From the NCBI GenBank assembly GCA_947624445.1, contig CANQKF010000008.1, positions 1 through 64,000 of the forward strand: DNA of 64,000 nt, in the 5' to 3' direction. The position numbers were made by a program, and so were the translations under genes. Shown here in pieces: positions 1,468-64,000 of the stretch (the first letter of the stretch is position 1; the number at the start of each line of letters is the position of its first letter). Under the pieces are notes generated by a model, which saw only the letters and a program-made list of their open reading frames with translations, did no database searches and had not been told where the DNA came from. Source of the stretch: an uncultured Clostridia bacterium (GTDB taxonomy: Bacteria > Bacillota > Clostridia > Christensenellales > Borkfalkiaceae).

Positions 1468-1481
1468 TCTTGTGCGCTACT

Positions 1482-2453: not shown

Positions 2454-2531
2454 AGAACACCTCCTAAAATTTTTTCCAAAAAAAGTGCGCCAGCCGAAGC
2501 CAACGCACGAAAAACGCAAATTCCGACTGTC

Positions 2532-2674
2532 GCCAAACAATCATTCAAAGTACGGGTTCTTCCACACTCATCACGGGAATTTGCATTTTTACCAAATTCT
2601 AAAATGAGTGCGGAAAAATTTTATGAAATGAAAAAAGCCCATACTCCCAATTAAGGCTATGATGATTGTTTGGC
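2532..2674 (-). ncRNA. Candidate structured leader RNA
   Basis: The first 13 bases expected in the transcript (GCCAAACAATCAT, ending at 2662) are perfectly complementary to 2532-2544, which closes a 143-nt domain. Inside it, CCGCACTCAT and ATGAGTGTGG (2604-2613 and 2562-2571, one mismatch) and GAATTTG with CAAATTC form a nested hairpin with a nine-base loop. An AGCC/GGCT pairing followed by six T near 2635-2660 could act as an early terminator. A promoter ends at 2681, placing the RNA 5' end at the first base of the closing stem. The leucine-rich repeat gene starts 79 nt later. The regulatory role is inference. Confidence 0.5.
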
Positions 2675-2680
2675 ATTTTC

Positions 2681-2709
2681 AATATAACACATTTTGAAAA
2701 AGAAAGCAA
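2681..2709 (-). promoter_or_regulatory. Sigma-A promoter for the leader and LRR gene
   Basis: TTGCTT (2704-2709) and TATATT (2681-2686) are spaced 17 bp apart on the minus strand. The predicted start is at about 2674, the first base of the closing stem of the leader RNA. Confidence 0.75.
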
Positions 2710-2758
2710 GCCTTTTGCTGAAAATTTTTCTTTGGATTTGAAAAAGCAATATTATGAA

Positions 2759-2794
2759 GCCGCGGGGCGTTTGGATATCCAAGCGCCCCGCGGC
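2759..2794. repeat. 36-bp palindrome
   Basis: Two 18-bp arms meet at 2776/2777 with a single mismatch. The outer part GCCGCGGGGCG pairs with CGCCCCGCGGC. It marks the border between AT-rich DNA on the left and GC-rich repeat DNA on the right. No T tract follows, so it is not a standard terminator. Confidence 0.7.
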
Positions 2795-3260
2795 CCAACG
2801 TGATGGGGGCTTTGTCTTTGCCCGCCCCCCGTCATCCTAGCGCAGCGCCTCTGCGGGCGAGTTTTCCTATCATTCTGAACGAACGCGCCCCGCGCGCGGC
2901 TTCGATTGCTTACCAAGCGCGGCACGAGCACGTAGTGCGAAGTAAGAATCCAGAAATACGGAGTCCGTTTTCCAGCATCGACCGTCGGGATTCTTCGGGG
3001 GCTGCGCCCCCTCTGAATGACATGTGGGACGGGGCGGGGGCGGTTTTGAATGCGCCCGCGCGAGAGGTGCGGGGCTTTCCCCCCATCCGTCACGGCTGCG
3101 CCGTGCCACCCTCGCGCACGGGTAGAGCCCCGTGCTTGGTCGGCATTTGCCCTTGCATATGGGCAAATGCGAAAAGAATTTTGCGCTAAGAGTTATCAAC
3201 TCTTAGCAGAATGCAAAATTCTTCCCCCAGTGGGGGTAGGGCTTGGGACGATCGCGTGGG
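2795..3260. repeat. Palindrome-rich intergenic repeat region
   Basis: No convincing gene is present. An ATTCTGAACGAA-type end near 2872 faces a CTCTGAATGACA-type end near 3020, as in dispersed inverted repeats of other bacteria. Three hairpins follow. GCATTTGCCC pairs with GGGCAAATGC (3143-3170). GAATTTTGC pairs with GCAAAATTC around an inner 10-bp stem GCTAAGAGTT/AACTCTTAGC (3176-3221). CCCCCA pairs with TGGGGG near 3224-3236. It reads like stacked non-autonomous or REP-type elements. Confidence 0.55.
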
Positions 3261-3272
3261 TTTCTTGTAAAC

Positions 3273-3302
3273 AAAAAGCAGGGACGTTCTCCCTGCTTTT
3301 TT
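3273..3302 (-). terminator. Bidirectional terminator after recG
   Basis: AGCAGGGA pairs with TCCCTGCT around a five-base loop, with A and T runs on both sides. It lies 13 bases past the recG stop, so it can end recG transcription on the minus strand. Confidence 0.85.
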
Positions 3303-3315
3303 ATGGCCGACGACG

Positions 3316-5340: not shown

Positions 5341-5371
5341 TGAATTTTATTTCAATATGCTTCTTATAACA

Positions 5372-5396
5372 AAAAAGAGCGGTTCCCGCTCTTTTT
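5372..5396 (-). terminator. Terminator between fakA and recG
   Basis: AAAAAGAGCGG and CCGCTCTTTTT form a symmetric hairpin just past the fakA stop (5401). recG begins 32 bases later, so recG must be read by readthrough or from a weak local promoter that I cannot identify. Confidence 0.8.
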
Positions 5397-5400
5397 GCGC

Positions 5401-7047
5401 TTATTCGAGGGACAGCAGGTAGTAGTAGACGGGCTGCCCGCCGCTGTGATAGTCTACGTCGCAATCGGGGAAGGCGTCCTGCACCTTGGCGGCGAGCGCC
5501 GCCGCCTCCGATTCCTGCACCCCCTCGCCGTAGTAGAGCGTGATGACTTCGTGCGAATCGTCTTTGAGTTTATCGAGCAGGGTGAGCACGGCGTCGTCGA
5601 TGTTGTCGCTCTTCGAGAGGATCTTCTTGTCGTCGAGCCCGATGATGTCCCCCTCTTTGATCTTGAACCCGTTCACGCTCGTCGTGCGGACGGCGTGGGT
5701 GACCTGCCCTGCGCGCACGTTGTCGAGCGCGTGGATCATGTTCGTCTTGTTCTCCTCGGCGGAGACTTCGGGCGAGAAGGCGAGCGCGGCGGCAAAGCCC
5801 TGCGGGATATTTTTGGTGGGAATGACGTGGATCGTGCGGTTCTCCACGAGCGCCTTCGCCTGCTCCGCCGCGAGGATGATATTCTTGTTGTTGGGGAACA
5901 CGAACACGTTGTCCGCATTGATCTTCTGCACCGCCGTCGCGATGTCCGAGGCGGAGGGATTCATCGTCTGCCCGCCCTCGATGACCTTATCCACGAAGAG
6001 ATCCTTGAAGATCTCCGCAAGTCCGCCGCCCGCGCAGATGGCGAGCATGCCCTGCTCCTTCTTTTCCGCCGCGATCTTCTCTTTGAGACGGCGGTTCTGC
6101 TCGAGCATGTTCTCGATCTTGGGACGGTCGAGCTCGCCGAGCTCGAGGGCATAGGTGAGGGCGACGCCCGGGCAATTCGTGTGCACGTGCACCTTGACCA
6201 TCTCGAGGTCGCCAATGCAGATGACCGAATCCCCGATGTTCATGAGGTTCTCGCGGAGCTTATCGATGTCCGCGAGCGTCGTGCTCTTCTTTAAGTTGAT
6301 GACGAAAAACTCGGTGCAGTAGGCGAATTGGATATCCCCGAGATCCATGTTGATGATCTCGGAATTGTCGCCGAAGTCGGCGTCCATCGAGGTCTGCGCC
6401 GCGTCCGTGGGCACTTCGGAGGCGATCTCCTCGCCCATCAGCGCCGAAAGGAAGCCGCGCATGATCGTCATGAGCCCGACGCCGCCCGAATCGACGACGC
6501 CCGCCTTCTTCAAAACGGGCAAAAGTTCGGGCGTTTTGGCGAGCGCACGGTCCCCCTCTTCGATGATCGCGGGCAAAAACGTCTCGAAATCGCGGTATTT
6601 TCCCGCGTTTTTCGCCGCGAATTCGCTCATCATGCGCACGACGGTGAGGATCGTGCCCTCTTTGGGGATGGAGACGGCGTTGTAGGCGACCTTTGTGCCC
6701 GCCTCGAGCGCCTTGGCAAAGACTTTGGTATCGATCTCGGACTTCTGCGTGCGCAGGACCGAGCAGATCCCGCGGAAAATTTGCGACAAAATGACGCCCG
6801 AGTTCCCCCGCGCGCCCTTCAGCGCCCCTTTCGAGACGAGGTCGCACACTTCGGCAAAGCTGTTCGAGGCGGAGGAAGAGAGTTCTTTCACCGCGGACTG
6901 CATCGTGAGCGACATATTGGTACCGGTATCGCCGTCGGGCACGGGAAAGACGTTGAGCGCGTCTACCTTCGCCCGATTGTTATCCAGCGTTTTCGCGCCC
7001 GCAAAGACCATCTTGCGGAACAGCGCACAATTTATCGTTTTTTGCAT
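5401..7047 (-). CDS. fakA: Fatty acid kinase catalytic subunit FakA (DAK2/DegV-type)
   Basis: FakA phosphorylates fatty acids presented by a FakB carrier protein, feeding exogenous fatty acids into phospholipid synthesis. The 548 residues match S. aureus FakA in size. The N-terminal DAK2 nucleotide-binding domain has the Mg-binding loop PVPDGDTGTNM (residues 36-45). The middle domain is conserved in the family. The C-terminal part from about residue 320 is DegV-like. A GGAG sequence lies eight bases before the ATG. asp23 lies immediately upstream, a standard Firmicute pair. No fakB is in the window. The older label dihydroxyacetone kinase-like is less accurate. Confidence 0.9.
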   Translation of the reverse strand: MQKTINCALFRKMVFAGAKTLDNNRAKVDALNVFPVPDGDTGTNMSLTMQSAVKELSSSASNSFAEVCDLVSKGALKGARGNSGVILSQIFRGICSVLRTQKSEIDTKVFAKALEAGTKVAYNAVSIPKEGTILTVVRMMSEFAAKNAGKYRDFETFLPAIIEEGDRALAKTPELLPVLKKAGVVDSGGVGLMTIMRGFLSALMGEEIASEVPTDAAQTSMDADFGDNSEIINMDLGDIQFAYCTEFFVINLKKSTTLADIDKLRENLMNIGDSVICIGDLEMVKVHVHTNCPGVALTYALELGELDRPKIENMLEQNRRLKEKIAAEKKEQGMLAICAGGGLAEIFKDLFVDKVIEGGQTMNPSASDIATAVQKINADNVFVFPNNKNIILAAEQAKALVENRTIHVIPTKNIPQGFAAALAFSPEVSAEENKTNMIHALDNVRAGQVTHAVRTTSVNGFKIKEGDIIGLDDKKILSKSDNIDDAVLTLLDKLKDDSHEVITLYYGEGVQESEAAALAAKVQDAFPDCDVDYHSGGQPVYYYLLSLE

Positions 7048-49808: not shown

Positions 49809-50300
49809 ATGTTTTGCAGGGATTGCGGCGAAAAACTTTCGCTCCGCTTTTTGGAAAACGAGGGGCTCGTGCCCTATTGCAATAAGTGCGGGAAATTCAA
49901 ATTTCCCTTCTTCCCCGTGGCGGTCTCCATGGTCGTCGTGCGGCGGTCGGACCGCGCCATTTTGCTCGCAAAGCACGTCGGCGACGAGGACTATAAGCTC
50001 ATCGCGGGGTACATCAAAAAGGGCGAGAGCGCGGAAAAGACGATCCCGCGCGAACTCCGCGAGGAGACCCATCTCACCGCCGTCAAGTGGAAGTATCTCG
50101 CCTCCCGCTATCACGACGCAAAGGATATCCTGATGCTCGGCTTCCTCGTCACCTGCGACGACGGCGAGCTCTCCTACAACGAGGAGATCGCCGAGACGCG
50201 CTGGTGCACCCCCGAGGAGGCGCGGGCGATCATCCGCAAAAATTCGACGGCGGAATTCTTCCTGAACGCGGCGATCGCCGAACTCGGAAGAAAGAAATGA
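49809..50300 (+). CDS. Nudix hydrolase with N-terminal zinc ribbon
   Basis: The 163-residue protein starts at the ATG behind GAGGAGG. An upstream frame to 49773 is not supported. Two CxxC pairs (CRDCG and CNKCG, residues 3-29) form a zinc ribbon, as in NADH-pyrophosphatase-like Nudix proteins. The Nudix box GYIKKGESAEKTIPRELREE (near residues 68-90) has the catalytic REL-EE residues. The usual Gly after EE-x is His here (EETHL). The substrate is not known. NAD(H) or nucleoside diphosphate derivatives are likely. Confidence 0.87.
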   Translation: MFCRDCGEKLSLRFLENEGLVPYCNKCGKFKFPFFPVAVSMVVVRRSDRAILLAKHVGDEDYKLIAGYIKKGESAEKTIPRELREETHLTAVKWKYLASRYHDAKDILMLGFLVTCDDGELSYNEEIAETRWCTPEEARAIIRKNSTAEFFLNAAIAELGRKK

Positions 50301-50301
50301 C

Positions 50302-50341
50302 ATGCAAAAAAAATCGGCGGAAACGCCGATTTTTTTTGCAT
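50302..50341 (+). terminator. Bidirectional terminator between Nudix and acyltransferase genes
   Basis: ATGCAAAAAAAATCGGCG pairs with CGCCGATTTTTTTTGCAT around GAAA, an 18-bp arm palindrome. It can stop both converging transcripts. Confidence 0.93.
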
Positions 50342-50373
50342 TTTTTGATGGATGTCCCCCCCTCTTTTCCGCA

Positions 50374-51135
50374 TCACGGGCGGGGAAGATAGGTGTGCTT
50401 GGCGTAGGTCGAGAGCGCGCTGCGCTCGCACATCGCCCGAAAGGCCGCGTCGCGCAGTTCCCGCTTTTGCTCCCGCTTGGAGTGCGCGGCGTCGGGGAAA
50501 AACGGGCCGTCGATGTACACCGTCGCCTTCACGCCCACGAGCCGCTTTTTGTAGGTCACCGTGAACGTGAACACGGGCTTGCCCGTCGCGACGGGGTAGG
50601 CGAAGGACGCGTCGACGAAGGGACGGATGCCCGTATAGAGCGGCCAGATGTGCGCTTCGGGGAAAATAACGACCACGTCCCCCCGCTTCATGCGCTCCGA
50701 GACGGCTTCGTGCAGCCTGCGCGCCTGCGGCAACGTCTCGGGGACGGGCATGCCGCCGAGGTCCTCGACGATGCGCCTGCACCCCGGGATGGAGACGGCG
50801 TCGGGATCGACGAGCAGATAGGGTTTGCGCGGGAATGCCACCATGGAGGGCGTGAAGGCGTCCCCGCCGAGGCGGGTGTGGTTGCCGTAGAGAAAATATC
50901 CGCTCTTTTTGTAGGGGCGGAGTTTGTTTCTGCCGACGATCTTCTGCCCGTAGCCGAATTTGAGGTAGAGATAGGCGACGGGCGTCGCGATGAGATGGTG
51001 CAGCACCCAGGCAACGCCCCGCCGCACCCTGCTCTTCGGAAGATATTCGTAGTGCTCGGGCAGCGGTTTGCGCTTGATCTTCGTCCCCGCGAAGTCGTCG
51101 TTCAAGGGGTCGTTGTAGTAAAAAACCTTCCCCAT
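50374..51135 (-). CDS. PlsC-like 1-acylglycerol-3-phosphate acyltransferase
   Basis: The 253-residue protein starts at MGKVFYYND. A longer upstream frame is shadow of the glycosyltransferase. The acyltransferase motif GNHTRLGGDAF has His and Asp separated by five residues, rather than the usual four. FPEAHIWP is motif III. Substrate-binding GKPVFTFTVTYK and hydrophobic stretches fit a membrane-bound lipid acyltransferase. It starts one base after the glycosyltransferase stop, so they form a lipid-sugar unit. Confidence 0.78.
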   Translation of the reverse strand: MGKVFYYNDPLNDDFAGTKIKRKPLPEHYEYLPKSRVRRGVAWVLHHLIATPVAYLYLKFGYGQKIVGRNKLRPYKKSGYFLYGNHTRLGGDAFTPSMVAFPRKPYLLVDPDAVSIPGCRRIVEDLGGMPVPETLPQARRLHEAVSERMKRGDVVVIFPEAHIWPLYTGIRPFVDASFAYPVATGKPVFTFTVTYKKRLVGVKATVYIDGPFFPDAAHSKREQKRELRDAAFRAMCERSALSTYAKHTYLPRP

Positions 51136-51136
51136 G

Positions 51137-52267
51137 TCACTGTTTTTTGTGCGCGACGTCCTCGAGCATGCGCTCCATGGCCCGCATGCAGTCCTGCTGG
51201 CGGAAGCGGTCGCGGTCGGCTTCGTAGCGGGCGCGGTAGGCCTCGATGCGGTCGTCCCTGCGATAGAAATAGGCGATCTTTTCGGCGAGGTCGCGGCTGT
51301 CCCCCATGCGGAAGAGGCACCGCTCGTCCACCGCAAAGTTCTTGGTCGCGCTGCGCGGGGAATTGCAGATGATGGGCACGAGCCCGCTCACGATCGCTTC
51401 GAGGCAGGCGATGGCCTCGATCTCGACGATCGCCGTATGCACATAGAGGTCGGCGCCGTGCATGACGTCGAGCAGTTCTTCGCGCGAATAGAAGCGGAAA
51501 TCGGCGTCGACTTTCTTGCGCTGCGCGAGCTTTTTGAGTTTCTTCTCCCGCGGTCCGCTCCCCGCGAAGTAGATCTTGATGTCCTCCCGCAGCGGAGACT
51601 TGGCGACGGCCTTGATGAGCACTTGCTGGGCCTTCTCGCGGCTGAATCTGCCGAGGCAGAGGATGGTGAACTTCTCGCTGAGCCGCTTCTTTTCGCGGGG
51701 GAGGAAGAAGGCGTCGTTCACGCCGTTGGAGATCACGCGGCAGGGCAGCGCGCACTTCATCTCGCGCTCGAAGAGCCCGCGGATGAACTCGGTGGGATAG
51801 TGCACGCAGTCCACATGGCGGTAGACGTGGCGGTAGAAACAGGAGTAGATGATGTGGTTGATGAGCTTGCTGTTCATGCAGGCGACGTGCGCGGAGAAGT
51901 TCTCCGCCTGCGCGTGGAAGCTCGCCGTCATCGGGATCTTGAGCTCCTGCGCGACCTTGACCGCGGCGGAACCCAGCCAGAACGGAATGAGGATATGCAC
52001 GACGTCCGATCCCTCCATCACGCGGCGGAGGACCTTGCGGTCGCCCTTCGCGAGGGTGACGTTGTTGGCCTTCAGGATGAGGTTGAAGGGGCCGAAATTC
52101 TTGACAGGCACGACGACAAAGCCCTCTTTGTCCGCCTTATCGGGGTCCGCGCAGACGACCGTGACGTCGTGCCCCGCTTCCTTCAGATAGCCGATGAGAT
52201 TATATGCTGCGAGCGTCGTGCCGTTGTTGGGCTTCCCAAGCACGTCGCATACGATCGTGATCTTCAT
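51137..52267 (-). CDS. GT4-family glycosyltransferase, probable glycolipid synthase
   Basis: The 376-residue protein resembles GT4 diacylglycerol glucosyltransferases and alpha-mannosyltransferases. The N-terminus has KPNNGTTLAAYNLIGYLK (acceptor domain), and the C-terminal nucleotide-sugar domain has CLGRFSREKAQQVLIKA and a Glu-rich EIEAIACLEAIVSG. It is coupled to a lipid acyltransferase, suggesting a glycolipid or phosphatidyl-glycoside. A strong promoter and an inverted-repeat operator candidate lie upstream. Confidence 0.82.
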   Translation of the reverse strand: MKITIVCDVLGKPNNGTTLAAYNLIGYLKEAGHDVTVVCADPDKADKEGFVVVPVKNFGPFNLILKANNVTLAKGDRKVLRRVMEGSDVVHILIPFWLGSAAVKVAQELKIPMTASFHAQAENFSAHVACMNSKLINHIIYSCFYRHVYRHVDCVHYPTEFIRGLFEREMKCALPCRVISNGVNDAFFLPREKKRLSEKFTILCLGRFSREKAQQVLIKAVAKSPLREDIKIYFAGSGPREKKLKKLAQRKKVDADFRFYSREELLDVMHGADLYVHTAIVEIEAIACLEAIVSGLVPIICNSPRSATKNFAVDERCLFRMGDSRDLAEKIAYFYRRDDRIEAYRARYEADRDRFRQQDCMRAMERMLEDVAHKKQ

Positions 52268-52324
52268 TTTTTTCCTCGATTTTCCCCATGTGAATCATGC
52301 AATTTCGTTGCTTTTGTGACTTTT

Positions 52325-52342
52325 GTCATAAAAATCTATGAC
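52325..52342 (-). promoter_or_regulatory. Inverted-repeat operator candidate
   Basis: GTCATA and TATGAC are perfect 6-bp arms around six bases, located just downstream of the predicted transcription start (about +4 to +21). Binding there would block transcription. It could also be a weak leader hairpin. Confidence 0.45.
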
Positions 52343-52352
52343 TTTCAATGCC

Positions 52353-52381
52353 ATTATAACATGTTGTCCCAATGCTGTCAA
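52353..52381 (-). promoter_or_regulatory. Promoter of the glycosyltransferase-acyltransferase operon
   Basis: TTGACA (52376-52381) and TATAAT (52353-52358) lie 17 bp apart on the minus strand, leaving a leader of about 80 nt. Confidence 0.9.
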
Positions 52382-52570
52382 GGAAATTGCGGGAGAATTT
52401 TTCAGGATCCTTCGGCGCACGGGGAGAACGGACCCCTCCGCCCGCCCTTCGGCGCGCCCCGCAAGGGCAGCCGCCGCAGACAAAAGAGCCGCGCGCAGCA
52501 GGCAAACGCAGCATGGCGGGCTTTGTTGCAAATTTGCAGTTCGCCTGTGCGCAGTCCGAAAAATGCACGA

Positions 52571-52597
52571 AAAAGCACCCGAACGGGTGCTTTTTCA
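52571..52597 (-). terminator. Terminator after yebC
   Basis: AAAAAGCACCCG and CGGGTGCTTTTT form a palindrome with T runs. A second AT-rich hairpin (TTATTTCGAT / ATCGAAATAA, 52609-52632) lies between it and the yebC stop. The 52382-52570 part has no gene. Confidence 0.8.
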
Positions 52598-52637
52598 GCC
52601 AAAACACTTTATTTCGATTTTTATCGAAATAACTTTT

Positions 52638-53378
52638 TCACTCCTCTTCGTCGTCCTCGGGCAGGTCGACGTTGTGGTAGACGTTCTGCACGTCGTCGTT
52701 CTCCTCGAGCTTCTCGAGCATTTTCAAAAAGCTCTCGAGCTTTTCGCCCTCGAGGGTAATCTTGTTCTGCGGGATCATCGTGAGCTCGGCTTGCAGGAAG
52801 GCCATGCCCTTCTCCTCGAGGTACTTGCGCACCCCCGAAAACGCGGCGACCGAGGTGTAGACCTCGAACGCGTCCTCGACGGGCACAACGTCGTCCGCGC
52901 CCGCCTCGATGGCGAGCTCGAACACCATATCTTCGGTGAGCCCGGGCTTTGCTTCGATGACGATGAGCCCCTTGTTCTCGAACATGTAGGAGACCGAGCC
53001 CGTCGTGCCCAGCGAGCCGCCGCACTTCGACATGATGGCGCGCACGTCCCCCGCGGTGCGGTTGATGTTGTCGGTCAGCGTGGCGACGATGACCGCCGCC
53101 CCGCCCGCGCCGTAGCCCTCGTAGGTGAGCTCTTTGAAGTCGCGGTCGCCGAGTTCGCCCGCCGCCCGCTTGATGGAGCGCTCGATGTTGTCGTTGGGCA
53201 TGTTCGCCGCCTTGGCTTTGGCGACGACGTCGGCGAGCTTGGAGTTGGTCGCGGGGTTGGGGTTCCCCTTTGCCGCGACGGCGATCTCCCTGCCGATCTT
53301 GGTGAAGAGCCGCCCGCGCGCTGCGTCTGCCTTGCCCTTCTTTGCCTGTATGTTATGCCATTTGCTGTGTCCGGACAT
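52638..53378 (-). CDS. yebC: YebC/PmpR family regulator
   Basis: The 246-residue protein of the YebC/TACO1 family acts as a transcriptional regulator or translation activator at proline stretches. It starts MSGHSKWHNIQAKKGKADAA with AGGAGG in front. The GGAAVIVATLTDNINRT and PQNKITLEGEKLESF regions are typical. The acidic C-terminus (PEDDEEE) is slightly long. It follows the methyltransferase gene by 12 bases. Confidence 0.92.
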   Translation of the reverse strand: MSGHSKWHNIQAKKGKADAARGRLFTKIGREIAVAAKGNPNPATNSKLADVVAKAKAANMPNDNIERSIKRAAGELGDRDFKELTYEGYGAGGAAVIVATLTDNINRTAGDVRAIMSKCGGSLGTTGSVSYMFENKGLIVIEAKPGLTEDMVFELAIEAGADDVVPVEDAFEVYTSVAAFSGVRKYLEEKGMAFLQAELTMIPQNKITLEGEKLESFLKMLEKLEENDDVQNVYHNVDLPEDDEEE

Positions 53379-53390
53379 ATCCTTCCTCCT

Positions 53391-54152
53391 TTATTTCTTC
53401 GCGTACCCCAAAAGGTACATCATGATCCCCGCCGAGACCGCCGCATTCAGGCTCTCCACGGGATCCTGCATGGGGATGCCGACCGTGCGGTCGGCGCGCC
53501 CGCGCACCGCGTCCGAGAGGCCGCCGCCTTCGTTCCCGATGCAGATACAAAATTTTTCGGGCGGCACAAAGGTGAACGCATCCTCGCCGCCCATATCCGC
53601 CGCGATGAGGGGCACGCCCCCGAGCGCCGTAAGGATCTCCTCCCGCGTCCCCCGCATGAGTTTGCAGTAGAACACGCCCGACATCGAGGCCCGCACGCTC
53701 TTGGGGGCATACGGATCGGCGCAGTCGGCGAGGTAGATCTCGCGGTAGCCCGCCGCGGCTGCGGTGCGGATGACCGCGCCCACGTTGGCGGGATCGGCGA
53801 CCCCGTCGAGCAGCAGACAGCGGCCACGTGGCGGCTGCGGCGGGGCTTCGGGGATCTTGACCTCCGCGAGAATGCCCTGCGGCGTCTTTTCGTCGGAGAC
53901 GGCGCGGAAGGCCTCTTCCCCGAGCAGCACGACCGCGCCGCGGCGGTCCTTGAAATACGGCGCTTCCATGAGCGCGCGGCGCTCCCCGGTGGCGAGGAGG
54001 GCGATCCGCACGATCTCCATGCCGCTCTCCGCGCATTCGCGGAACATTTTATCGCCCTCGACGAGGAACGTCCCCCGTTCTCTTCTGCCCTTCTTCTCCT
54101 TGAGGGAGGCGAGCTCCTTGACGACGGGATTCTGTTTGGATACGATGACCAT
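53391..54152 (-). CDS. TrmH/SpoU-family RNA 2'-O-methyltransferase
   Basis: The 253-residue enzyme starts at the ATG at 54150-54152 (MVIVSKQNPVVKELASLK). Extension upstream is shadow of rplT. Residues 1-90 form an RNA-binding domain (RGTFLVEGDKMFRE). The knotted SPOUT domain has LLDGVADPANVGAVIRTAAA, CICIGNEGGGLS and IPMQDPVESLNAAVSAGI. It probably methylates a ribose in 23S rRNA or tRNA. The location next to rplT in Firmicutes is standard. There is no good ribosome site, and a terminator sits right before the start. Confidence 0.9.
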   Translation of the reverse strand: MVIVSKQNPVVKELASLKEKKGRRERGTFLVEGDKMFRECAESGMEIVRIALLATGERRALMEAPYFKDRRGAVVLLGEEAFRAVSDEKTPQGILAEVKIPEAPPQPPRGRCLLLDGVADPANVGAVIRTAAAAGYREIYLADCADPYAPKSVRASMSGVFYCKLMRGTREEILTALGGVPLIAADMGGEDAFTFVPPEKFCICIGNEGGGLSDAVRGRADRTVGIPMQDPVESLNAAVSAGIMMYLLGYAKK

Positions 54153-54160
54153 GTGCCGTG

Positions 54161-54187
54161 AAAAAAGCCTTTCTACGCGAAAGGCTT
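54161..54187 (-). terminator. Terminator of infC-rpmI-rplT
   Basis: On the minus strand, AAGCCTTTC pairs with GAAAGGCTT around GCGTA, followed by TTTTTT. It lies between the rplT stop (54194) and the methyltransferase ATG (54152). Confidence 0.88.
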
Positions 54188-54193
54188 CTTCGT

Positions 54194-54544
54194 TCAGATG
54201 GCAGCCTTCGCCTTCTCGCAGAGCGAGGCAAAAGCCTTCTCGTCGGAGACGGCGAGCTCGGCGAGCATCTTGCGGTTGAGGTCGATGCCCGCGACTTTGA
54301 GCCCGTGCATCAGCTTGGAATAGGACAGCCCGTTGAGGCGGGCGCCCGCGTTGATGCGCGCGATCCAAAGGCTCCGCATATCGCGCTTTCTGCGCTTTCT
54401 GCCGACATATGCATATTGCAGGGACTTCATCACCGCCTGGCGGGCGATGCGGTAGTTCTTGCTCTTGCAGCCGAAGTAGCCCTTCGACAGCTTGAAGATC
54501 TTCCTGCGCTTTTTGACTGCGTTGACGCCTCTCTTGATTCTCAT
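54194..54544 (-). CDS. rplT: 50S ribosomal protein L20
   Basis: The 116-residue protein starts [25 protein letters not shown], the family N-terminus. Sequence and length are standard. AGGGAGG-like GGGAGG precedes the ATG. L20 usually represses its own operon by binding the leader of infC. Confidence 0.98.
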
Positions 54545-54559
54545 GCTTTGTTCCTCCCG

Positions 54560-54760
54560 TTAGTCCTTGTAGGGGATCATCCGCTTCACGGTCTTTTCCT
54601 GCGTGACGGAGACGAGCGTCACCTGGCGCAACGTCCGCTTCCTCTTTCTGTTCTTGGTTTCAGCCTTGTGGTTCTTGCCGCCGTGCGATCTGTTGACCTT
54701 GCCCGAGCCGGTGAGCCAGAAGCGCTTTTTTGAGCTGCTGTGCGATTTTTGTTTCGGCAT
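54560..54760 (-). CDS. rpmI: 50S ribosomal protein L35
   Basis: The 66-residue basic protein MPKQKSHSSSKKRFWLTGSGK has the L35 pattern. It lies between infC and rplT with short spacings (15 and 27 bases). Confidence 0.97.
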   Translation of the reverse strand: MPKQKSHSSSKKRFWLTGSGKVNRSHGGKNHKAETKNRKRKRTLRQVTLVSVTQEKTVKRMIPYKD

Positions 54761-54787
54761 GACTTTTCGTCCTCCTCTATGTTTTCC

Positions 54788-55318
<531 letters not shown>

Positions 55319-55467
55319 ATTCCTCGCAAAAAATAAGAACGGGTTTCACAGAAGAAACCCGTTGAATTGTTTTATGCACGGCGAACCGCCGCGGCACATC
55401 CGAATTCATTGACCCGCGCAGCCTTTGCCGCAGCGGAGAGAAGGGTCGCTTCTGCTTTGCTTTTATT
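55319..55467 (-). promoter_or_regulatory. infC (L20-type) leader with attenuator
   Basis: The 150-nt leader of the infC operon ends in a hairpin of AACGGGTTTC and GAAACCCGTT (55339-55363), followed by a T-rich tail, just before the infC start. This fits the L20/IF3 autoregulatory leader of Firmicutes. I cannot confirm the L20-binding pseudoknot by eye. Confidence 0.7.
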
Positions 55468-55496
55468 AGGATAGCAGATTTTTGCGCCCTTGTCAA
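55468..55496 (-). promoter_or_regulatory. Promoter of infC-rpmI-rplT
   Basis: TTGACA (55491-55496) and TATCCT (55468-55473) are spaced 17 bp on the minus strand. The -35 box touches the end of the ABC gene at 55504. Confidence 0.82.
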
Positions 55497-55503
55497 CTGT
55501 TTT

Positions 55504-57936
55504 TCAGCCCTTTTTTATGGCTTCTGCGGGATCGCAGCGGGAAATTTTTCCGAGCGGCAGCGCCGTCCCCGCCGCGATCACGCCGAAGGAGCCGAGAAGC
55601 AGCACGGGGACCGTCCACGGCGTGTAGCCGAAGAGCACGAGCCCTGCGAGCTCCCACGAGACGGCAAAGATGTTGTTGAGGACGGCGAGCAGCACGAGGG
55701 TGATCGCCGTGCTGAGCGCAAAGACGACGGCGGAGAGGATCGCCGCCTGCGCGAAGTAGATCTTCGTAACGTCCGCCGCCCGCGCGCCGAGCGCGCGCAG
55801 GACGCCGATCTCCTTGCGCTGCGCGAGGATGCTGTAAGAGATCAGGCTCACGACGATGAGCAGCGTGATGAGCACCATGAACGCGCCGATGGCGAGGAAG
55901 GCAAAGCCGATGTTCTTCTGGTAGCTCTCGGAGCCGTAGATGAACTCGGAATATTCGCATTCCGCCGCGAGCGCATGGTCGTAGCGGAGGGCGCGGAGGG
56001 CGCGGTAGAGCTTCATCTCGCCGACCCCCGCGGTGCGGAGCAGCACCCGGTTGGGGCGGAACGCCTCGGCGGCGATCTGCCGCATGTCCCCGTCGCCGAA
56101 ATAGATCGTTCCTCCGACGCGCTCCTCCGGAAATTCGTATCTATCGTACATCGCCACCCCGACGATCTTGTATTCCCGCCCGAGGATCGTCCGATCCCCC
56201 TGCGCGACATCGAGGCGGACGGTCTCCCCCAAATACTTGGGGAAAACGCGCACCGCGCCGCCGTCGAGGCAGCTTTGGCAGGTCAGCCACTCCCCCGTGG
56301 CGCGGAAGAGCGCATTGTAGGCGTCCTCACCGAGGACGATCTCCCCCGCATTCAGCGTTATCTCGCCGTAAGAAAGGGCGGTCTCTCTCCCCTGCATGAT
56401 GATCTGTTCCCACGCGGACGCCGTTCTTTGGAGATGTTTGAACGTCAACCAATCGCATTTCACCGCGCGGCCCCCCTCGGAGAGGGTGATGGCGTGCGGA
56501 TCGTACTTGTCGTCGGAGAGTCCGAACGCGTCGAGATGGGTGAGGATATATTCCTTGGTGCAGAAGAGATCGGCGTAGGCGTCGTTCTCCGCGACGATCC
56601 CTGCAATTTCGATCTCTTTGTTTGCGGTGCCGTTCAAATTGTCGCTCAAATTTTCGACGTAGACCGTCTTGCCGACGAGCGAGGCGGCGGTGTACTTTTC
56701 GGCGGACATGGGAACGAGTTCCTCCCCTTCGCGCACATAATAGTAGGGCGAGGTGAGAAATTGCTGCGAATCCGCCACCGTTTTGAACATCCTTTCCACA
56801 GTCCCGTCGCTGAGATATACCGCGTCGTCCGTGAGCGGCTCCGCCCCCTCGTAGAGGGTGAATCCGTTCGCCGCGAGCTGCGCGCCGTTCTCTACGCATA
56901 AGCAGCGGAACGCGCTGTACAGCCGGTAGCTCTCGAGATGGTCGAATTTTGCGAGGGGCTTTCCGAAATCTTCGTCGCGGATGGGATCGTAGCCGCCGCT
57001 GATCCCCGCGAATGCGTCGGGCGTGCTCCGCTGGGCAAGTTCGATATATGGGATGTCGTTCTGCACGACGCTCTTTGCGAGCGCGCGCTCGGCGTTGGAG
57101 GAGACGAGCGTCTGCGCCAGCACGAGCACCGAGAGGGCGAGCGTTGCGACGAGAAAGGTCGCGACGCTCTTGAATTTCTTTCTGCCGAAGTTGCGCCACC
57201 CCATGCGGAGGGCGAGCCGCCCGGGAAGATGCGGCCGCACGCCGCGCTTTGCGCTTTGCGCCGTTTCCGCGGCTTCGGGCGCGCTGTCCGCGACGACCCG
57301 CCCGTCCTTGAGTTCGATGATCCTGTCCGCGTATTTTTCGGCGGATTCCCTGTCGTGCGAGACGACGACCACGAGCTTTTCCCGCGCGATCGCGCGCAGG
57401 ATGCCGAAGATCTCCTCCCCCGTCTCGCTGTCGAGATTGCCCGTCGGCTCGTCCGCGAGGATCATCTCGGAGTCCTTCACGAGCGCCCGCGCGATGGCGA
57501 CGCGCTGCTTCTCTCCCCCCGAGAGTTCGCCCGGGGCGCGGGACGCGTAGCCCGCGAGCCCCACCTTTTCCAGCGCCCCGTCAACTTTTTCGTCCACATC
57601 CTTCCCGCTCTGCAACTGCAGGGCGAGCGCGACGTTGCTCCCCACCGTCTCCTCTTCGAGCAGCGCGAAATCCTGAAAGACGAACCCCGAAAAGCGGTTC
57701 CTGAAATCGTCGATCTCCTGCCCCTGCGGCGCGGCGCCGCAGATCTCCACCGTGCCGCTTGTGGGACGGTCGAGGAGCCCGATGATGTTGAGCAGGGTCG
57801 TCTTTCCGCTGCCGCTCTTGCCGAGCACAAAGACCATCCCGCGGGCGGGGAGCGTGAGATCGATCCCCTTGAGCGCATCGAAGGGGACCCCCTTCTTGGG
57901 GCGATACGTCTTGGTTACGTTTTTGAGCACGATCAT
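55504..57936 (-). CDS. MacB-like ABC transporter, ATPase fused to FtsX-type permease (copy 3)
   Basis: The 810-residue protein starts at the ATG at 57934-57936 behind AGGAGG. The extension to 58026 is not supported. ATPase motifs are [36 protein letters not shown] and SHD. TM1 is near residue 252, so the linker is 70 to 80 residues shorter than in copies 1 and 2. The extracellular domain is about 380 residues. The C-terminal FtsX segment has [15 protein letters not shown]. It ends in PAEAIKKG, typical of the family. The substrate is unknown. Divergence suggests a separate subfamily. Confidence 0.9.
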
Positions 57937-58010
57937 GCCGTGTACCTCCTGTGAGAGAACGCGATTCCAACGTTTCGGCGCGCGGATCTGTCCCGCCGCG
58001 GGGGAAAATC

Positions 58011-58040
58011 GCGCGCCGCGAAGCATGCTTCGCGGCGCGC
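58011..58040 (-). terminator. 30-bp perfect palindrome after thrS
   Basis: GCGCGCCGCGAAGCA and its exact complement meet at 58025/58026. On the minus strand GATTTTCC follows. It is five bases after the thrS stop and is a likely terminator, though its T tract is short. Confidence 0.7.
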
Positions 58041-58045
58041 GCCGT

Positions 58046-60004
58046 TCAGAAGATGATCTTCTCTTCGTCCTCTCTCTTGCAGAGGGCGATGAAGTCCTCC
58101 TTCTTCATCGAGCCGATGTCGCCCTGCCCGCGCTTGCGGACGGAGACGCTGCCCTCCTCCACCTCTTTGTCGCCCACGACGAGCTTATAGGGCACCTTTT
58201 CGTTCTCGGCGTCGAGGATCTTCCTGCCGATCTTCTCGTTGCGGTAATCCCCCTCGGCGCGGAGCCCGCGCATGGAGAGTTCGTCGACGAGCCTGCGCGC
58301 ATAGTCCGCGGCGCGGTCGGTGATGGGCAGCACCTTGACCTGCACGGGCGAGAACCAGAGCGGGAAGGCGCCCGCGTACTTCTCAATGAGGATGGCGAGC
58401 GTGCGCTCGTAGCAGCCGATGGAGGAGCGGTGGATGACGTAGGGCGTCTTTTTCACGCCGTCGGCGTCGACGTACTCCATGCCGAAGGAATGCCCCGCCG
58501 CAAAGTCGATCTGGATGGTGATGAGGGTATCCTCCTTGCCGAACACGTTTTTGGTCTGCACGTCGAGCTTGGGACCGTAGAAGGCGGCCTCGTCGTCGGC
58601 CTCCACATAGTCGAGCCCGAGGTCGTCGAGGATGGTTTTCATCATCGCCTCGGTGTTGTTCCACGCCGCGTCGTCGTCGATATACTTATCGGACTTGCTC
58701 TTGCCGCGCTTGGAGAAGCGGAAGGTGACGTCCTGCCGCATGCCGAGGCAGTCGAGGATATAATAGGAGAGGTCGAGGCAGCGCTTGAACTCCTCCTCCA
58801 CCTGCTCCTTGGTGCAGATGATGTGCCCGTCGGAGAGGGTGAACTGCCGCACGCGGATGAGCCCGTGCATCTCGCCCGAGGCCTCGTTGCGGAACTCCGT
58901 CGCCGTCTCCGAATAGCGGCAGGGAAGATCGCGGTAGGATTTGAGCCCGTTCTTGTAGATCTGGTATTGGAAGGGGCAGGTCATCGGGCGGAGCGCCATG
59001 ATCTCCTCCCCCTTGTTTTTCGCCTCGCCGTGGTCGTCCACCTCGCCGAGCACGAACATCTTATCGCGGTAGTGCGCCCAGTGGCCCGAGATCTTATAGA
59101 GATCGGATTTCGCCATGTTGGGCGTCTTGGTGATCATGAATCCCCGCTTTGCCTCCTCGTCCTCGACGAAGCGGGAGAGGATCTGGAGCATCTTCGCCCC
59201 CTTGGGCATGAGGATGGGCAGGCCCTGCCCGATGACGTCGCTCGTCATGAAGATGCCGAGATCCCGCCCGAGCTTGTTGTGGTCGCGCTTTTTGGCCTCT
59301 TCGAGGCGGATGAGGTATTCGTCGAGCTCCTCCTTTTTGGCGAAGGCGGTGCCGTAGATGCGGGTGAGCATCTTCTTCTTTTCGTCGCCCCGCCAATAGG
59401 CGCCCGCGAGCGAGGTGAGCTTGAAGGCGCGGATCTTGCCCGTCGAGGGAAGGTGCGGCCCGCGGCAGAGATCGGTGAACGCCCCCTGCTTATAGAAGGA
59501 GAGCACGGCGTCCTTGGGGAGATCCTGGATGAGCTCCACCTTGTAGTTCTCGTGGTAGCCCGCCATGAGGGCGAGGGCGTCCTCGCGGGGCAGCGTGAAG
59601 CGCTCGATGGGAAGATTGCTCTTGATGATCTTCTTCATCTCCGCCTCGATCTTCGCGAAGTCCTCCATCGTGATGGGCGTCTTGAAGTCGACGTCGTAGT
59701 AGAAGCCGTTCTCGATCACGGGGCCGATCGCGAGCTTGCAGGTGGGATAGATGTTTTTGAGCGCCTGCGCGAGCACGTGCGCGCAGGTGTGGCGGTAGAC
59801 GTCGAGCCCCTCCTTTTCCTTGAGGGTGACGATCTCGAGCGCGTCGCCCTCGCGGAGCGGCGAAGAGAGATCGCAGAGCTCGCCGTTGACGCGGGCGCAG
59901 ACCGCCGCGCGCGCAAGCCCCTCGGAAATCGCCTGCGCCGCGGAGAGCGCGGTCGCGCCCTCTGCGAGTTCGAGTGCGTCGCCGTTTTTCAGCGTGATGT
60001 TCAT
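58046..60004 (-). CDS. thrS: Threonyl-tRNA synthetase
   Basis: The 652-residue class II synthetase has an N-terminal TGS domain, the editing domain (HTCAHVLAQALK and the YDVDF region, with RGPHLPSTG), class II motif 2 (YRDLPCRYSETATEFRNEASG), zinc-site cysteine in RPMTCPFQ, and motif 3 (HRSSIGCYERTLAILIEKYAG), followed by the anticodon-binding domain. AAGGAGAAACG precedes the ATG. A T-box leader lies upstream, and ytxC precedes it, as in B. subtilis. Confidence 0.97.
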   Translation of the reverse strand: MNITLKNGDALELAEGATALSAAQAISEGLARAAVCARVNGELCDLSSPLREGDALEIVTLKEKEGLDVYRHTCAHVLAQALKNIYPTCKLAIGPVIENGFYYDVDFKTPITMEDFAKIEAEMKKIIKSNLPIERFTLPREDALALMAGYHENYKVELIQDLPKDAVLSFYKQGAFTDLCRGPHLPSTGKIRAFKLTSLAGAYWRGDEKKKMLTRIYGTAFAKKEELDEYLIRLEEAKKRDHNKLGRDLGIFMTSDVIGQGLPILMPKGAKMLQILSRFVEDEEAKRGFMITKTPNMAKSDLYKISGHWAHYRDKMFVLGEVDDHGEAKNKGEEIMALRPMTCPFQYQIYKNGLKSYRDLPCRYSETATEFRNEASGEMHGLIRVRQFTLSDGHIICTKEQVEEEFKRCLDLSYYILDCLGMRQDVTFRFSKRGKSKSDKYIDDDAAWNNTEAMMKTILDDLGLDYVEADDEAAFYGPKLDVQTKNVFGKEDTLITIQIDFAAGHSFGMEYVDADGVKKTPYVIHRSSIGCYERTLAILIEKYAGAFPLWFSPVQVKVLPITDRAADYARRLVDELSMRGLRAEGDYRNEKIGRKILDAENEKVPYKLVVGDKEVEEGSVSVRKRGQGDIGSMKKEDFIALCKREDEEKIIF

Positions 60005-60100
60005 ATTCGTTTCTCCTTTTTTTTGCCGATTTTGTATTTTTCCGAGGTATTATGTCTGGCATAATGCGTGACATAGTACCTTGCAAAGGCTTGAAAAATG

Positions 60101-60309
60101 AAAAATCGTCCTCAAAATCCCCCTTGGGAGAGTTTAAGGACGCCTTATGAGCGCGGTTCCACCTTAATTGCCCCGCATGCCTGCGGGACCGCTCGAAGAT
60201 TCATTTTTGGGATAAAATAAAGCGGTTTCGCCGCGCGGTGCGATGGAGATCTCTCAGCCGCGGATCCCCTCTCTGGGAATGCGCATCGGGCGCTACTTGT
60301 CTTTAAGTA
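60101..60309 (-). promoter_or_regulatory. T-box riboswitch controlling thrS
   Basis: The T-box sequence AAGGTGGAACCGCG (core TGGAACCGCG at 60152-60161) is clear. It is followed by a terminator with 16-base arms (60108-60123 and 60126-60141, 13 of 16 pairs) and a T-rich tail. Stem I lies near 60220-60300 with AGTAGCGCC and a GGCTGAGAG region. Candidate ACC threonine specifier codons lie at 60237-60239 or 60223-60225, which I cannot choose between by eye. Uncharged tRNA-Thr should favour the antiterminator. Confidence 0.92.
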
Positions 60310-60315
60310 ATTCGT

Positions 60316-60344
60316 ATTTTACGCCCTTTGCACGCGTTTGTCAA
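60316..60344 (-). promoter_or_regulatory. Promoter of the thrS T-box
   Basis: TTGACA (60339-60344) and TAAAAT (60316-60321) are spaced 17 bp on the minus strand. The -35 box overlaps the ytxC stop codon at 60341. Confidence 0.88.
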
Positions 60345-61021
60345 GAAAATACGGTGCGGTCCGCATAATATTTTCGGAGAAAATCGGTGAGTTGCGGCGA
60401 GATCCCGCCGAGGCAGTAGACGAACCCCGCATCCGAAAGCATGATCTCGGTCTCGGCGTCCTCCTGCCCCGTGAGGCGGCTGCGTTTGAGGCGCAGAAAG
60501 TTTTCCCCGAACACGGCGTTGTCCTTGAGATAGACCTTGCGGCGGCTCTCCCCCACGAGGAATTCGCAGAACTTTTTGAGGTCCTCGGGCGAGAAGGTGC
60601 AGGGGATGTATTCGAGGATGCGCGTCCATTTTTCGCGGAGCGCCCCCAGGCGGAAGTTGTAGAAGCCGTCGATGCAGAGCTCTCCCGCGGGGGCGAGGCG
60701 GGCGCGGATATAGCGGCCATCCCCCTCCTCGTCGGCGGCGATGAGCGCGCACAGGAGCAGCCGCTTTTCCCTGCGCGGCAGGCAGACGCGCACCTTCTCT
60801 TGCAGAAAGGCATACTTATAGCCCACGCCGACGATCTCCGCGATCTTGGAGAGCAGCAGGGGCATGAGCCCTTCGGGCAGCCGCAGAAAAAGGGCCGTGC
60901 GCGTTTCGCCGAACATGAGCTCCCCGCCGCCGCCCAGCCGCATCGCCTCCCCCGCGACGGCGTTGTAGAGATAGGTGATGAAGGCGCCGTGCCCGATTGT
61001 ATCCGAAACGGTGATGTCCAC
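60341..61021 (-). CDS. ytxC: YtxC-like putative sporulation protein
   Basis: The 226-residue protein is of the YtxC type, which lies directly before thrS in B. subtilis. The start appears to be a GTG at 61019-61021 (MDITVSDTIGHGAF). No strong ribosome site is visible. The sequence is mixed alpha and hydrophobic, with no catalytic motif that I recognise. Identification rests partly on synteny with thrS. Together with spoVM it supports a sporulating host. Confidence 0.6.
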   Translation of the reverse strand: MDITVSDTIGHGAFITYLYNAVAGEAMRLGGGGELMFGETRTALFLRLPEGLMPLLLSKIAEIVGVGYKYAFLQEKVRVCLPRREKRLLLCALIAADEEGDGRYIRARLAPAGELCIDGFYNFRLGALREKWTRILEYIPCTFSPEDLKKFCEFLVGESRRKVYLKDNAVFGENFLRLKRSRLTGQEDAETEIMLSDAGFVYCLGGISPQLTDFLRKYYADRTVFS

Positions 61022-61109
61022 GTTAGTTATTGTATGCCATGCGCCGCAATTTATTTATGGGATCTTGGCCCATGCCGCCGATAAATTTGGGAAATATATG
61101 GTAGTCTGC

Positions 61110-61138
61110 TTGACATATCGCCCAAAATATAGTATAAT
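61110..61138 (+). promoter_or_regulatory. Promoter of leuS
   Basis: TTGACA (61110-61115) and TATAAT (61133-61138) are 17 bp apart on the plus strand. The leader to the leuS ATG is about 24 nt, so there is no T-box for leuS here. Confidence 0.9.
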
Positions 61139-61168
61139 TTTCCGCACTTGAATCGCAAAGAGGTTTTC

Positions 61169-63832
61169 ATGGATATCAAATCGGTCGAAAAGAAATGGCA
61201 ACAAAAGTGGGAAAAGAGCAAGCTCAACGTGTTCGATCCGCGTTCGGACGCGCCGAAATACTATGTGCTCGAGATGTTCTCCTATCCCTCGGGCGCCAAG
61301 CTGCACATCGGGCATTGGTACAACTACGGCCCCGCGGATAGCTTCGCGCGCTTCAAGCGGATGCAGGGCTACAACGTGTTCCAGCCCATGGGCTTCGACG
61401 CCTTCGGTCTCCCCGCCGAGAACTATGCCATCAAGACGGGCGTGCACCCCAAGGATTCCACCGAAAAGAACATCGAGACGATGGAGCGCCAGCTCCGCGC
61501 GATGGGCGCCATGTTCGATTGGTCCGCCGAGATCAAGACCTGCGAGGAAAACTACTATAAGTGGACGCAGTGGATGTTCCTCAAGCTCTATCAGAAGGGG
61601 CTCGCCTACCGCAAGGAGGCGCCCGTGAACTGGTGCCCCTCCTGCAATACCGTGCTCGCGAACGAGCAGGTGATCGACGGCCGCTGCGAGCGGTGCGACA
61701 GCGTGGTCGTCCGCAAAAATCTCACCCAGTGGTTCTTCAAGATCACCGAATACGCCGAGGAGCTCCTCTCCGGGCTCGACCGCCTCGATTGGCCTGAAAA
61801 GACAAAGAACATGCAGCGGAACTGGATCGGCAAATCCACGGGCTGCGAGATCGAATTCACCTCCGAGCAGGGGGACCCCATCCGCGTGTTCACGACGCGC
61901 TGCGACACCGTGTTCGGCGTCACCTACATCGTGCTCGCGCCCGAACATCCCCTCGCCCGCAAGCTCGCGACGCCCGAACAGCGGGAGGCCGTCGAGGAAT
62001 ATATCGACTATGCCGCCCGCGCGAACGAGATCGAGCGGCTCTCCACCACCCGCGAAAAGACGGGCGTCTTTACGGGCGCCTATGCCGTCCATCCCCTCAC
62101 GGGGCGGAAAGTGCCCGTCTACCTCGCCGACTACGTGCTCGCCACCTACGGCACGGGCGCGGTGATGGCCGTTCCCGCCCACGACGAGCGGGACTATGCC
62201 TTCGCGAAAAAATACGGGCTGCCCATCGAGAAAGTCATCGAGAAGCGGGGCGGCGAGACCGAACTCCCCTTCTGCGAGGACGGCATCGTGGTGGGCTCGG
62301 GCGCATTGAACTTCGACGGGCTCTTCGGCGACGAGGCGCGGGATGCGATCGCGACCTACATCTCCAAGCTCGGCAAGGGCGGCAAGAAGCTCAACTACCG
62401 CCTGCGCGACTGGCTGGTCTCCCGCCAAAGATATTGGGGGGCGCCCATCCCCGTCGTGCACTGCCCCGTCTGCGGCGCGGTGCCCGTGCCCGAGAAGGAT
62501 CTGCCCGTCAAGCTCCCCTACGATGTGGAATTCCGTCCCGACGGCAAATCCCCCCTCGCAAAGCATGAAAAGTTCATGCGCACGACCTGCCCCAAGTGCG
62601 GCGGCGCGGCGCAGCGCGATCCCGATACGCTCGATACCTTCGTGTGCTCGAGCTGGTACTATCTCCGCTATGCGGACGCGGCGAACGACCGCGAGCCCTT
62701 CTCCCGCGCGGCGGTGGATCGGCTCCTGCCCGTCGATACCTATGTGGGCGGCGCAGAACACGCCTGCATGCACCTCCTCTATGCGCGCTTCTTCACCAAG
62801 GCGCTGCGCGATATGGGCTATCTCGACTTCGACGAGCCCTTCAAGCGGCTCGTGCACCAGGGCGTCATTCTCGGGCCCGACGGCAACCGCATGAGCAAAT
62901 CTCACGGCAACATCGTCTCCCCCGACGAGTATGTGGAACAGTACGGCGCCGACGCCTTCCGCCTCTACCTCATGTTCGGCTTCTCCTACACCGAGGGCGG
63001 ACCGTGGAGCGACGACGGCATCAAGGCGATCGCGAAATTCATGGACCGCGTGGAAAAGCTCGTCCTGAAAACCGAAGAATACAAAAAGCCCAAGGAACAA
63101 GAAGCGTACGGCGCCGCGGAAAAGGACGGGCTCGATCTCGTCGCATGGGGGGTCGTCCGCGAATACGGGAACAGGGCGGTGCGGCATGAATTTTCTCCGT
63201 ATCTGAGGCTCGATGAACTTTACGATGGCGCGGCATGCGCTGAGCTTCGGGAGGCGGTGCTGGATTGCAACGCCGAGCTCGGGGCGCCCTTCGGGAAACT
63301 GGTCCGCCGCGATATCGTCGCGGAAAACCGCATTTTTTTCGACGAAGAACTTCTGAACTATGCGGAAGATGTGGAATGGAATTTCCGTCTGTTTGCGTCC
63401 GTCCGTAGGGCAGTCATTTTAAGCGAATACGCGCATCACTATGTCTATCATCCCGCCTCGCTCACATCCTTGATCACAGAGCAGAACGCCCAAAGCGCCG
63501 TTTTGTGTTTCGGGAAGATCAGGGGCGGGATCAAACATACTCCCGATGAAGAACGGTTGCAGGAGCAGATCGACTATCGGTTTCTCTTTATGTTGACGGC
63601 GATCTCGATCTGCGGTTTTTTTCATCCGAAAAACGAGGCAAGCTATTCCGAAAAAAAGCGGGCGTTCAAGGCATATGTCGCACAGGATGAGGTGAAGCGG
63701 ACGCTCCGCTCGCCGAGCAGGAAGCGGCTCTCTTTTGCACAACGGACGGTGATCTTCTGCATGCGGCACCGTTGGTGTTTTGCGCTCCGCATTCTGGCAT
63801 CGGTGCGCTATCGCGAAAAAAAGGCGGCGTGA
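61169..63832 (+). CDS. Leucyl-tRNA synthetase front part fused in frame to a GT2 glycosyltransferase back part
   Basis: The open frame encodes 887 residues. Residues 1-653 are LeuRS: HIGH in KLHIGHW, zinc pair (CPSC and CERC), editing domain with CDTVFGVTY and [14 protein letters not shown], and RMSKS (near 573). The LeuRS part stops at AAEKD near base 63127. Beyond this, residues 654-887 ([43 protein letters not shown]) match the back half of family-2 glycosyltransferases. About 200 residues of LeuRS, including the anticodon-binding bundle, are missing. AAAGAGG precedes the ATG; a TTG at 61148 is less likely. Codon use shifts after about 63190. Either an assembly chimera or a real fusion. 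A cell needs another complete leuS. Confidence 0.85.
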
Positions 63833-63833
63833 T

Positions 63834-64000
63834 ATGGAGAAGGAAACACAATCGGAGCCGCTCGTCAGCGTCATTGTGCCGCTTCACAACGAGCCCGAAA
63901 AATATTTTAAGAAATGTATTGCGAGTGCGCGGGAGCAGACGCTTGCGGACATCGAGATCATCGTCGTGGATGACGGTTCGACGAGCGGCATCGAAACACT
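63834..64000 (+). CDS. GT2-family glycosyltransferase, N-terminal part (cut by window end)
   Basis: The gene starts with ATG one base after the fused gene's stop. The visible 55 residues have the GT-A start LVSVIVPLHNE and the nucleotide-sugar loop IIVVDDGSTSG. The gene runs off the window. Adjacent to the glycosyltransferase back half, it shows that this end belongs to a polysaccharide or glycolipid gene cluster. Confidence 0.9.
   Translation, partial: MEKETQSEPLVSVIVPLHNEPEKYFKKCIASAREQTLADIEIIVVDDGSTSGIET

What the first reader, a model, noticed from the sequence alone, without database searches (positions are those of the whole stretch)
61169..63832. In-frame LeuRS / glycosyltransferase chimera
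Reading the protein, LeuRS sequence is intact through the RMSKS loop and to AAEKD (about 63127), then changes at once to the back half of a GT2 glycosyltransferase. The frame is uninterrupted, but the LeuRS C-terminal domains are gone. GT2 codon use is less GC-biased. Either this is a mis-joined assembly, the simplest explanation, or a true recombination that made an in-frame fusion beside a glycosyltransferase cluster.
Basis: partly seen in the sequence, partly recalled or inferred. Interest (0 to 1): 0.75.

Follow-up and report, generated by a model that had tools for sequence, protein, structure and literature searches.

The report
Assembly-made leuS and glycosyltransferase chimera
The apparent fusion of a leucine-loading enzyme with a sugar-transferring enzyme sits at the broken end of an assembled contig and is best explained as pieces of related bacteria wrongly joined by the assembly software, so it is most likely not a real gene.

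Summary
In detail: one uninterrupted frame (61169-63832) is bacterial leucyl-tRNA synthetase (LeuRS) up to about residue 645-652, then the back half of a family-2 glycosyltransferase (GT2). It is very probably an assembly artefact. The contig (G000:C8) is 64,049 bases long, so the joint lies 0.9 kb from its end. Another contig of the same draft genome, C17, begins with the missing LeuRS 3' part: C17:1-58 is identical to window 62922-62979; C17 then diverges and continues into the anticodon-binding domain. C8 before the joint and C17 after it match the two sides of leuS on one contig of relative G012. A first, hidden joint is likely near 62922-62980: after it the window's leuS is 74.1% identical to G012 (86.2% to G082), lower than in any of 540 equal-sized upstream windows. 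At 63104-63125 both genes encode [A/P]YGA[A/E]EK in the same phase, so crossing there keeps the frame. From 63104 the DNA is 97.3% identical to an intact GT2 in G052. No other genome examined shows the fusion (0 of 93 congeners with a match; 9 more had none; 0 of 80 genome-contig loci). The GT2 front half was not found in this assembly. No reads were available, so the verdict is inferred, but strongly.

The parts
61169..62921 (+). 5' part of this organism's leuS (class I catalytic core, CP1 editing domain, RMSKS loop)
   Evidence: TIGR00396 and PF13603/PF00133 matches; over codons 1-585 closest to G012, 87.6% nt, rank 1 of 32, though G012 is first in only 264 of 540 sliding 46-codon windows; window 50000-63125 matches G012:C6 in four colinear blocks
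62922..62979 (+). 58-base stretch identical to the first 58 bases of contig C17 of the same genome: probable first joint (branch point)
   Evidence: exact run measured, first mismatch at 62980; 92% over the 143 bases 62922-63064
62980..63103 (+). leuS stretch probably of different ancestry from the upstream part
   Evidence: codons 605-650: G082 86.2%, G020 84.1%, G012 74.1%; none of 540 windows of the same size in codons 1-585 is as low against G012; C17 codons 20-64, the same part of the gene, are nearest to G012, 85.6%
63104..63125 (+). second joint: leuS-like and GT2 sequence coincide ([A/P]YGA[A/E]EK, same codon phase in both genes)
   Evidence: G052 GT2 identity starts exactly at 63104; blastn similarity to G012 and G054 leuS ends at 63125; codon phase 0 in both
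63126..63832 (+). 3' part of a GT2 glycosyltransferase gene lacking its N-terminal half
   Evidence: 63104-63832 is 97.3% identical to G052:C19; 93% in G079 and G089; intact 351-359 aa GT2 ORFs there; PF00535 in the two that were scanned, G052 and G079
63835..64000 (+). start of a second, tandem GT2 gene, cut off by the contig end at 64049
   Evidence: same tandem order in G079:C18 and G089:C7; contig length 64049

Best explanation
Assembly chimera in a draft genome that looks metagenome-assembled. The assembler followed this organism's leuS to a conserved stretch (62922-62979) shared with another leuS, left along that other gene's path, and about 125 bases later crossed again, at a short leuS/GT2 look-alike stretch (63104-63125), into a GT2 gene, ending 0.9 kb on. 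The organism's real leuS most likely continues on contig C17. The frame stays open because both genes happen to read [A/P]YGA[A/E]EK in the same codon phase at the crossing, so no selection for a fusion protein is needed. Shown: contig end, exact C17 overlap, matching gene order on both sides of leuS in G012, drop in similarity to G012 after the overlap, intact parental genes in relatives, no second fusion found. Inferred: that the assembler rather than the cell made the joints, and that the GT2 piece comes from a co-occurring congener.
For: Contig C8 ends at 64049, 0.9 kb past the joint. C17:1-58 is identical to window 62922-62979 and C17 then carries the rest of leuS with the anticodon-binding domain (TIGR00396 positions 618-842 of 843 in C17, 2-676 in the window protein). 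C17 bases 21-6450 (four blocks) and window 50000-63125 (four blocks) match the same G012 contig in order, on the two sides of leuS. Similarity to G012 drops after the overlap: 74.1% over codons 605-650, against a minimum of 77.5% in 540 equal windows of codons 1-585, and the gap to the best relative (12.2 points) is reached in 0 of those 540. C17 from codon 20 is nearest to G012 in 150 of 161 windows. The GT2 part is intact, with its front half, in G052, G079 and G089. No second fusion: 0 of 93 congeners with a match, 0 of 80 examined genome-contig loci. Records of relatives listed are mostly titled as metagenome bins. Chimeric contigs from k-mers shared by closely related species are a described failure (PMC7299287, passages seen).
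Against: No reads or coverage could be examined. The leuS donor for 62980-63103 was not found at near-identity (best 88%, G082). The rank evidence is weaker than the identity evidence: G012 is rank 17-18 of 32 after the joint, but ranks of 18 or worse also occur in 30 of 540 upstream windows. The shared 58 bases are themselves nearer to G003 than to G012, in C8 (96.5 against 84.2%) and in C17 (94.7 against 82.5%), and codons 541-585 also lean away from G012 (85.9 against 94.1%), so the first joint could lie upstream of 62922 or this may be a conserved-region effect. The second joint's shared stretch could not be measured against the true donor: the longest exact match between 31 leuS genes and two of the GT2 genes is 14 bases, and none of the 14 rows printed lies at the joint, so how an assembler bridged it is not shown. 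The front half of the GT2 was not found in the assembly.
Confidence: 0.95

Rival explanations
1. A real in-cell recombination at a short look-alike stretch fused leuS to a GT2 gene, and the cell survives on another leuS.
For: The frame is open across the joint and both parental genes exist in the genus.
Against: It would remove the anticodon-binding and C-terminal domains from an essential enzyme (domain absence; essentiality is established knowledge). The only other leuS found in the assembly is a fragment starting at a contig end inside the same gene, with an exact 58-base overlap. It does not explain the drop in similarity after 62980. No congener with a match has it.
Confidence: 0.02
2. 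A genuine strain-level variant: a decayed leuS copy from a congener, inserted with a polysaccharide cluster, beside an intact leuS that is only partly assembled.
For: The stretch 62980-63103 is nearest to other species' leuS; polysaccharide genes often move between bacteria (established knowledge); the GT2 part is 97.3% identical to G052 although the G052 leuS is only 78.6% identical over codons 1-585.
Against: Codons 1-585 and C17 share one nearest relative overall, so they look like the two ends of one gene, and C8 keeps the G012 gene order up to and into leuS. Such an insertion would have to begin where C17 begins.
Confidence: 0.03

Closest known systems
Bacterial leucyl-tRNA synthetase (TIGR00396, leuS_bact)
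   Same: Residues 2-642 match, with catalytic core, CP1 editing domain and RMSKS loop
   Different: Stops at model position 676 of 843; anticodon-binding and C-terminal parts missing here and found at the start of contig C17
Family-2 glycosyltransferase (PF00535) of the G052/G079/G089 type
   Same: Last 244 residues: 97% identical to G052 and 91% to G079 at protein level
   Different: N-terminal half missing; the piece alone matches no Pfam model
Chimeric contigs in short-read metagenome assembly (PMC7299287, passages seen)
   Same: Mixture of sequence from related genomes joined at shared sequence
   Different: The assembler and reads used for this genome are not known to me, so the mechanism inside the assembler is not shown

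Membership tests
Bacterial LeuRS | Class I catalytic core and CP1 editing domain | tested here: met
   PF00133, PF13603, TIGR00396
Bacterial LeuRS | Anticodon-binding and C-terminal domains in the same chain | tested here: not met
   No PF08264 listed for the window protein; present in C17
GT2 glycosyltransferase | N-terminal GT-A domain (PF00535) | tested here: not met
   0 Pfam families for the 244-aa piece; intact relatives G052 and G079 match PF00535 from residue 20 and 12
Assembly chimera | Joint near a contig end, with an alternative continuation of the broken gene on another contig sharing an exact overlap | tested here: met
Assembly chimera | Change of nearest relative at the joint | tested here: met
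   First joint: identity to G012 drops below all 540 control windows, exact place uncertain. Second joint: leuS to a different gene, 97.3% like G052
Assembly chimera | Drop or change in read coverage and lack of spanning pairs at the joint | not testable with these tools
   no reads held
Genuine gene fusion | Recurrence in independent genomes | tested here: not met
   0 of 93 congeners with a match, 9 further congeners without any (at most 4 candidates scored per genome); 0 of the 80 loci kept out of 238 confirmed

The most novel reading that the evidence does not exclude
A real in-frame fusion gene in which a truncated LeuRS (catalytic and editing domains only) carries a GT2 C-terminal half, living beside a complete leuS in the same cell.
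Probability: 0.02. Interest if true: 0.4.

Novelty: not a real feature. Interest (0 to 1): 0.05.

Why it matters
It matters mainly as a caution. An in-frame, stop-free joint is not evidence for a real fusion: two unrelated genes with a short similar stretch in the same codon phase give one automatically. This draft genome carries such a joint at a contig end, and a gene caller would report it as a novel two-domain protein.

Tried and rejected
Considered and rejected: a LeuRS-GT2 architecture conserved in the genus (no second example); a simple one-step swap at 63127 (similarity to G012 already drops near 62922-62980); LeuRS continuing past AAEKD at low similarity. Six genome-contig hits aligned over a longer part of the 121-aa query at 42-50% identity (L099, L106, L114, L125, L134, L145); those loci are ordinary LeuRS frames of 812-910 codons carrying my LeuRS C-terminal motif and no GT2 motif. 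In the same tally 75 of 80 loci were LeuRS with the C-terminal motif, 3 were GT2 alone, and 2 (L124, L126) were LeuRS-length frames of 843 and 830 codons in which my motif missed the C-terminal part. The GT2 motif was strict, so a very divergent GT2 partner could escape it.

Led nowhere: looking for a neighbour of C8's first 400 bases (self match only); for the GT2 front half in the own genome (C8 itself, the second GT2 on C8, and two 34-36% matches on C11); for exact leuS/GT2 microhomology at the second joint (31 of 32 leuS loci picked by the motif; two GT2 genes; at most 14 bases, printed rows lie elsewhere); paper searches for the rabbit-gut series (one listing on another subject) and for LeuRS-GT fusions (none listed). 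In one search the 14 loci on the minus strand were read in the wrong direction, so their low values are meaningless; G012 was dropped by a too strict motif and the script ended in an error. (32 relatives, all kept) replaces both, and one search is its control. The binomial value (3e-4) was computed on 100 of 135 sites although its printed label says 102 of 138; it assumes independent sites and I lean instead.

Full report
What is there. The frame 61169-63832 is open without a stop. Its first part is a bacterial LeuRS: TIGR00396 matches residues 2-642 to model positions 2-676 of 843, with editing and catalytic domains. The last 244 residues match no Pfam model alone. At DNA level 63104-63832 is 97.3% identical (709 of 729 bases) to the 3' part of an intact GT2 gene in the congener G052, whose whole product matches PF00535.

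Where it lies. The window is contig C8 of a 68-contig draft genome, completeness 93.85%, contamination 1.57. C8 is 64,049 bases long, so the joint lies 0.9 kb from the contig end, and the second GT2 starting at 63835 is cut off there.

The missing leuS end. Searching the own genome with the fusion protein finds a LeuRS fragment at the very start of contig C17. The first 58 bases of C17 are identical to window 62922-62979; then the two diverge, with 11 mismatches in the next 85 bases. C17 goes on through the anticodon-binding domain (PF08264) to LeuRS model position 842 of 843. The neighbour order agrees: C17 bases 21-6450 match G012:C6 in four colinear blocks on the downstream side of leuS, and window 50000-63125 matches the same G012 contig in four colinear blocks on the upstream side, with unaligned gaps between blocks. 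C17 is therefore the likely true continuation.

A probable hidden first joint. Codon-aligned leuS of 32 relatives: for window codons 1-585 the nearest is G012 (87.6%, next 84.4%). For codons 605-650 the nearest is G082 (86.2%), with G012 at 74.1%. For C17 codons 20-64, the same part of the gene, and 67-226, the nearest is G012 (85.6% and 85.1%). Control: of 540 windows of 46 codons within codons 1-585, none has so low an identity to G012 (minimum 77.5%) and none so large a gap to the best relative (12.2 points). Against this reading: rank alone is not decisive, since G012 is first in only 264 of the 540 windows and rank 18 or worse in 30 of them; codons 541-585 and the shared 58 bases, in C8 and in C17, are nearer to G003 and others than to G012. 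The exact place of the change is therefore uncertain, and a conserved-region effect may add to it. The second joint and the C17 overlap do not depend on this.

The second joint. Identity to the G052 GT2 starts exactly at 63104 and blastn similarity to the G012 and G054 leuS ends at 63125. Across these 22 bases both genes encode [A/P]YGA[A/E]EK in the same codon phase, which explains the open frame. I could not show the exact shared string, because the leuS donor was not found; among 31 leuS genes tested against two GT2 genes the longest exact match is 14 bases, with the printed top rows elsewhere in the genes.

Elsewhere. One search covered 103 genus genomes (own included) with window 62981-64049; 94 have a match, so 93 congeners have one and 9 have none; at most 4 candidates were scored per genome. 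In none of the 93 does one match span the joint. GT2-type matches at high identity occur in G052, G079 and G089 only, each with its leuS match on another contig. The earlier protein search of 61 genomes (its list is truncated) shows no second fusion among the listed rows; G005 and G045 match to query residue 675 and 665, slightly past the joint, but their DNA matches end at 63124 and 63125. In genome contigs 238 stretches were confirmed and the best 80 kept; 0 of the 80 hold both parts in one frame. The listing warns that the window's own genome may be left out.

Origin of the GT2 piece. It was found in 3 of the 102 congeners searched, and its front half was not found in the own assembly. The tandem second GT2 exists in G079 and G089 in the same order. 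The leuS genes of G052, G079 and G089 are only 77.9-78.6% identical to the window's over codons 1-585. A co-occurring congener is the likely donor; horizontal transfer of a polysaccharide cluster is not excluded, but would not explain the contig-end overlap.

Verdict. Assembly chimera, probably with two joints; not a real gene. Confidence 0.95 for the artefact as a whole; reads would settle it.

Noticed in passing
window 1080-1467 (-): tmRNA with a long, arginine-rich tag (ADEKSTKRASARRASARRVALAA, 23 aa). All 27 tmRNA loci over the Rfam cut-off that were read in the genus (27 of 31 genomes searched, own included) have predicted tags of 20-23 aa ending in ALAA, most of them rich in Arg. Typical tags are recalled as about 10 aa. 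One paper search (tmRNA, tag peptide, arginine-rich) listed one paper on another subject.
   Followed up: partly
window 61110-61138 (+): A perfect-looking sigma-70-type promoter (TTGACA, 17 bases, TATAAT) before leuS, read by eye; not scanned by tool.
   Followed up: no
L067 3577-5689; L068 4903-7015: Tandem pair of related GT2 genes in G079 and G089; the 3' part of the second gene is 69% identical to the window's GT2 piece and the two products end alike. In G052 the GT2 is followed by a different gene instead.
   Followed up: no
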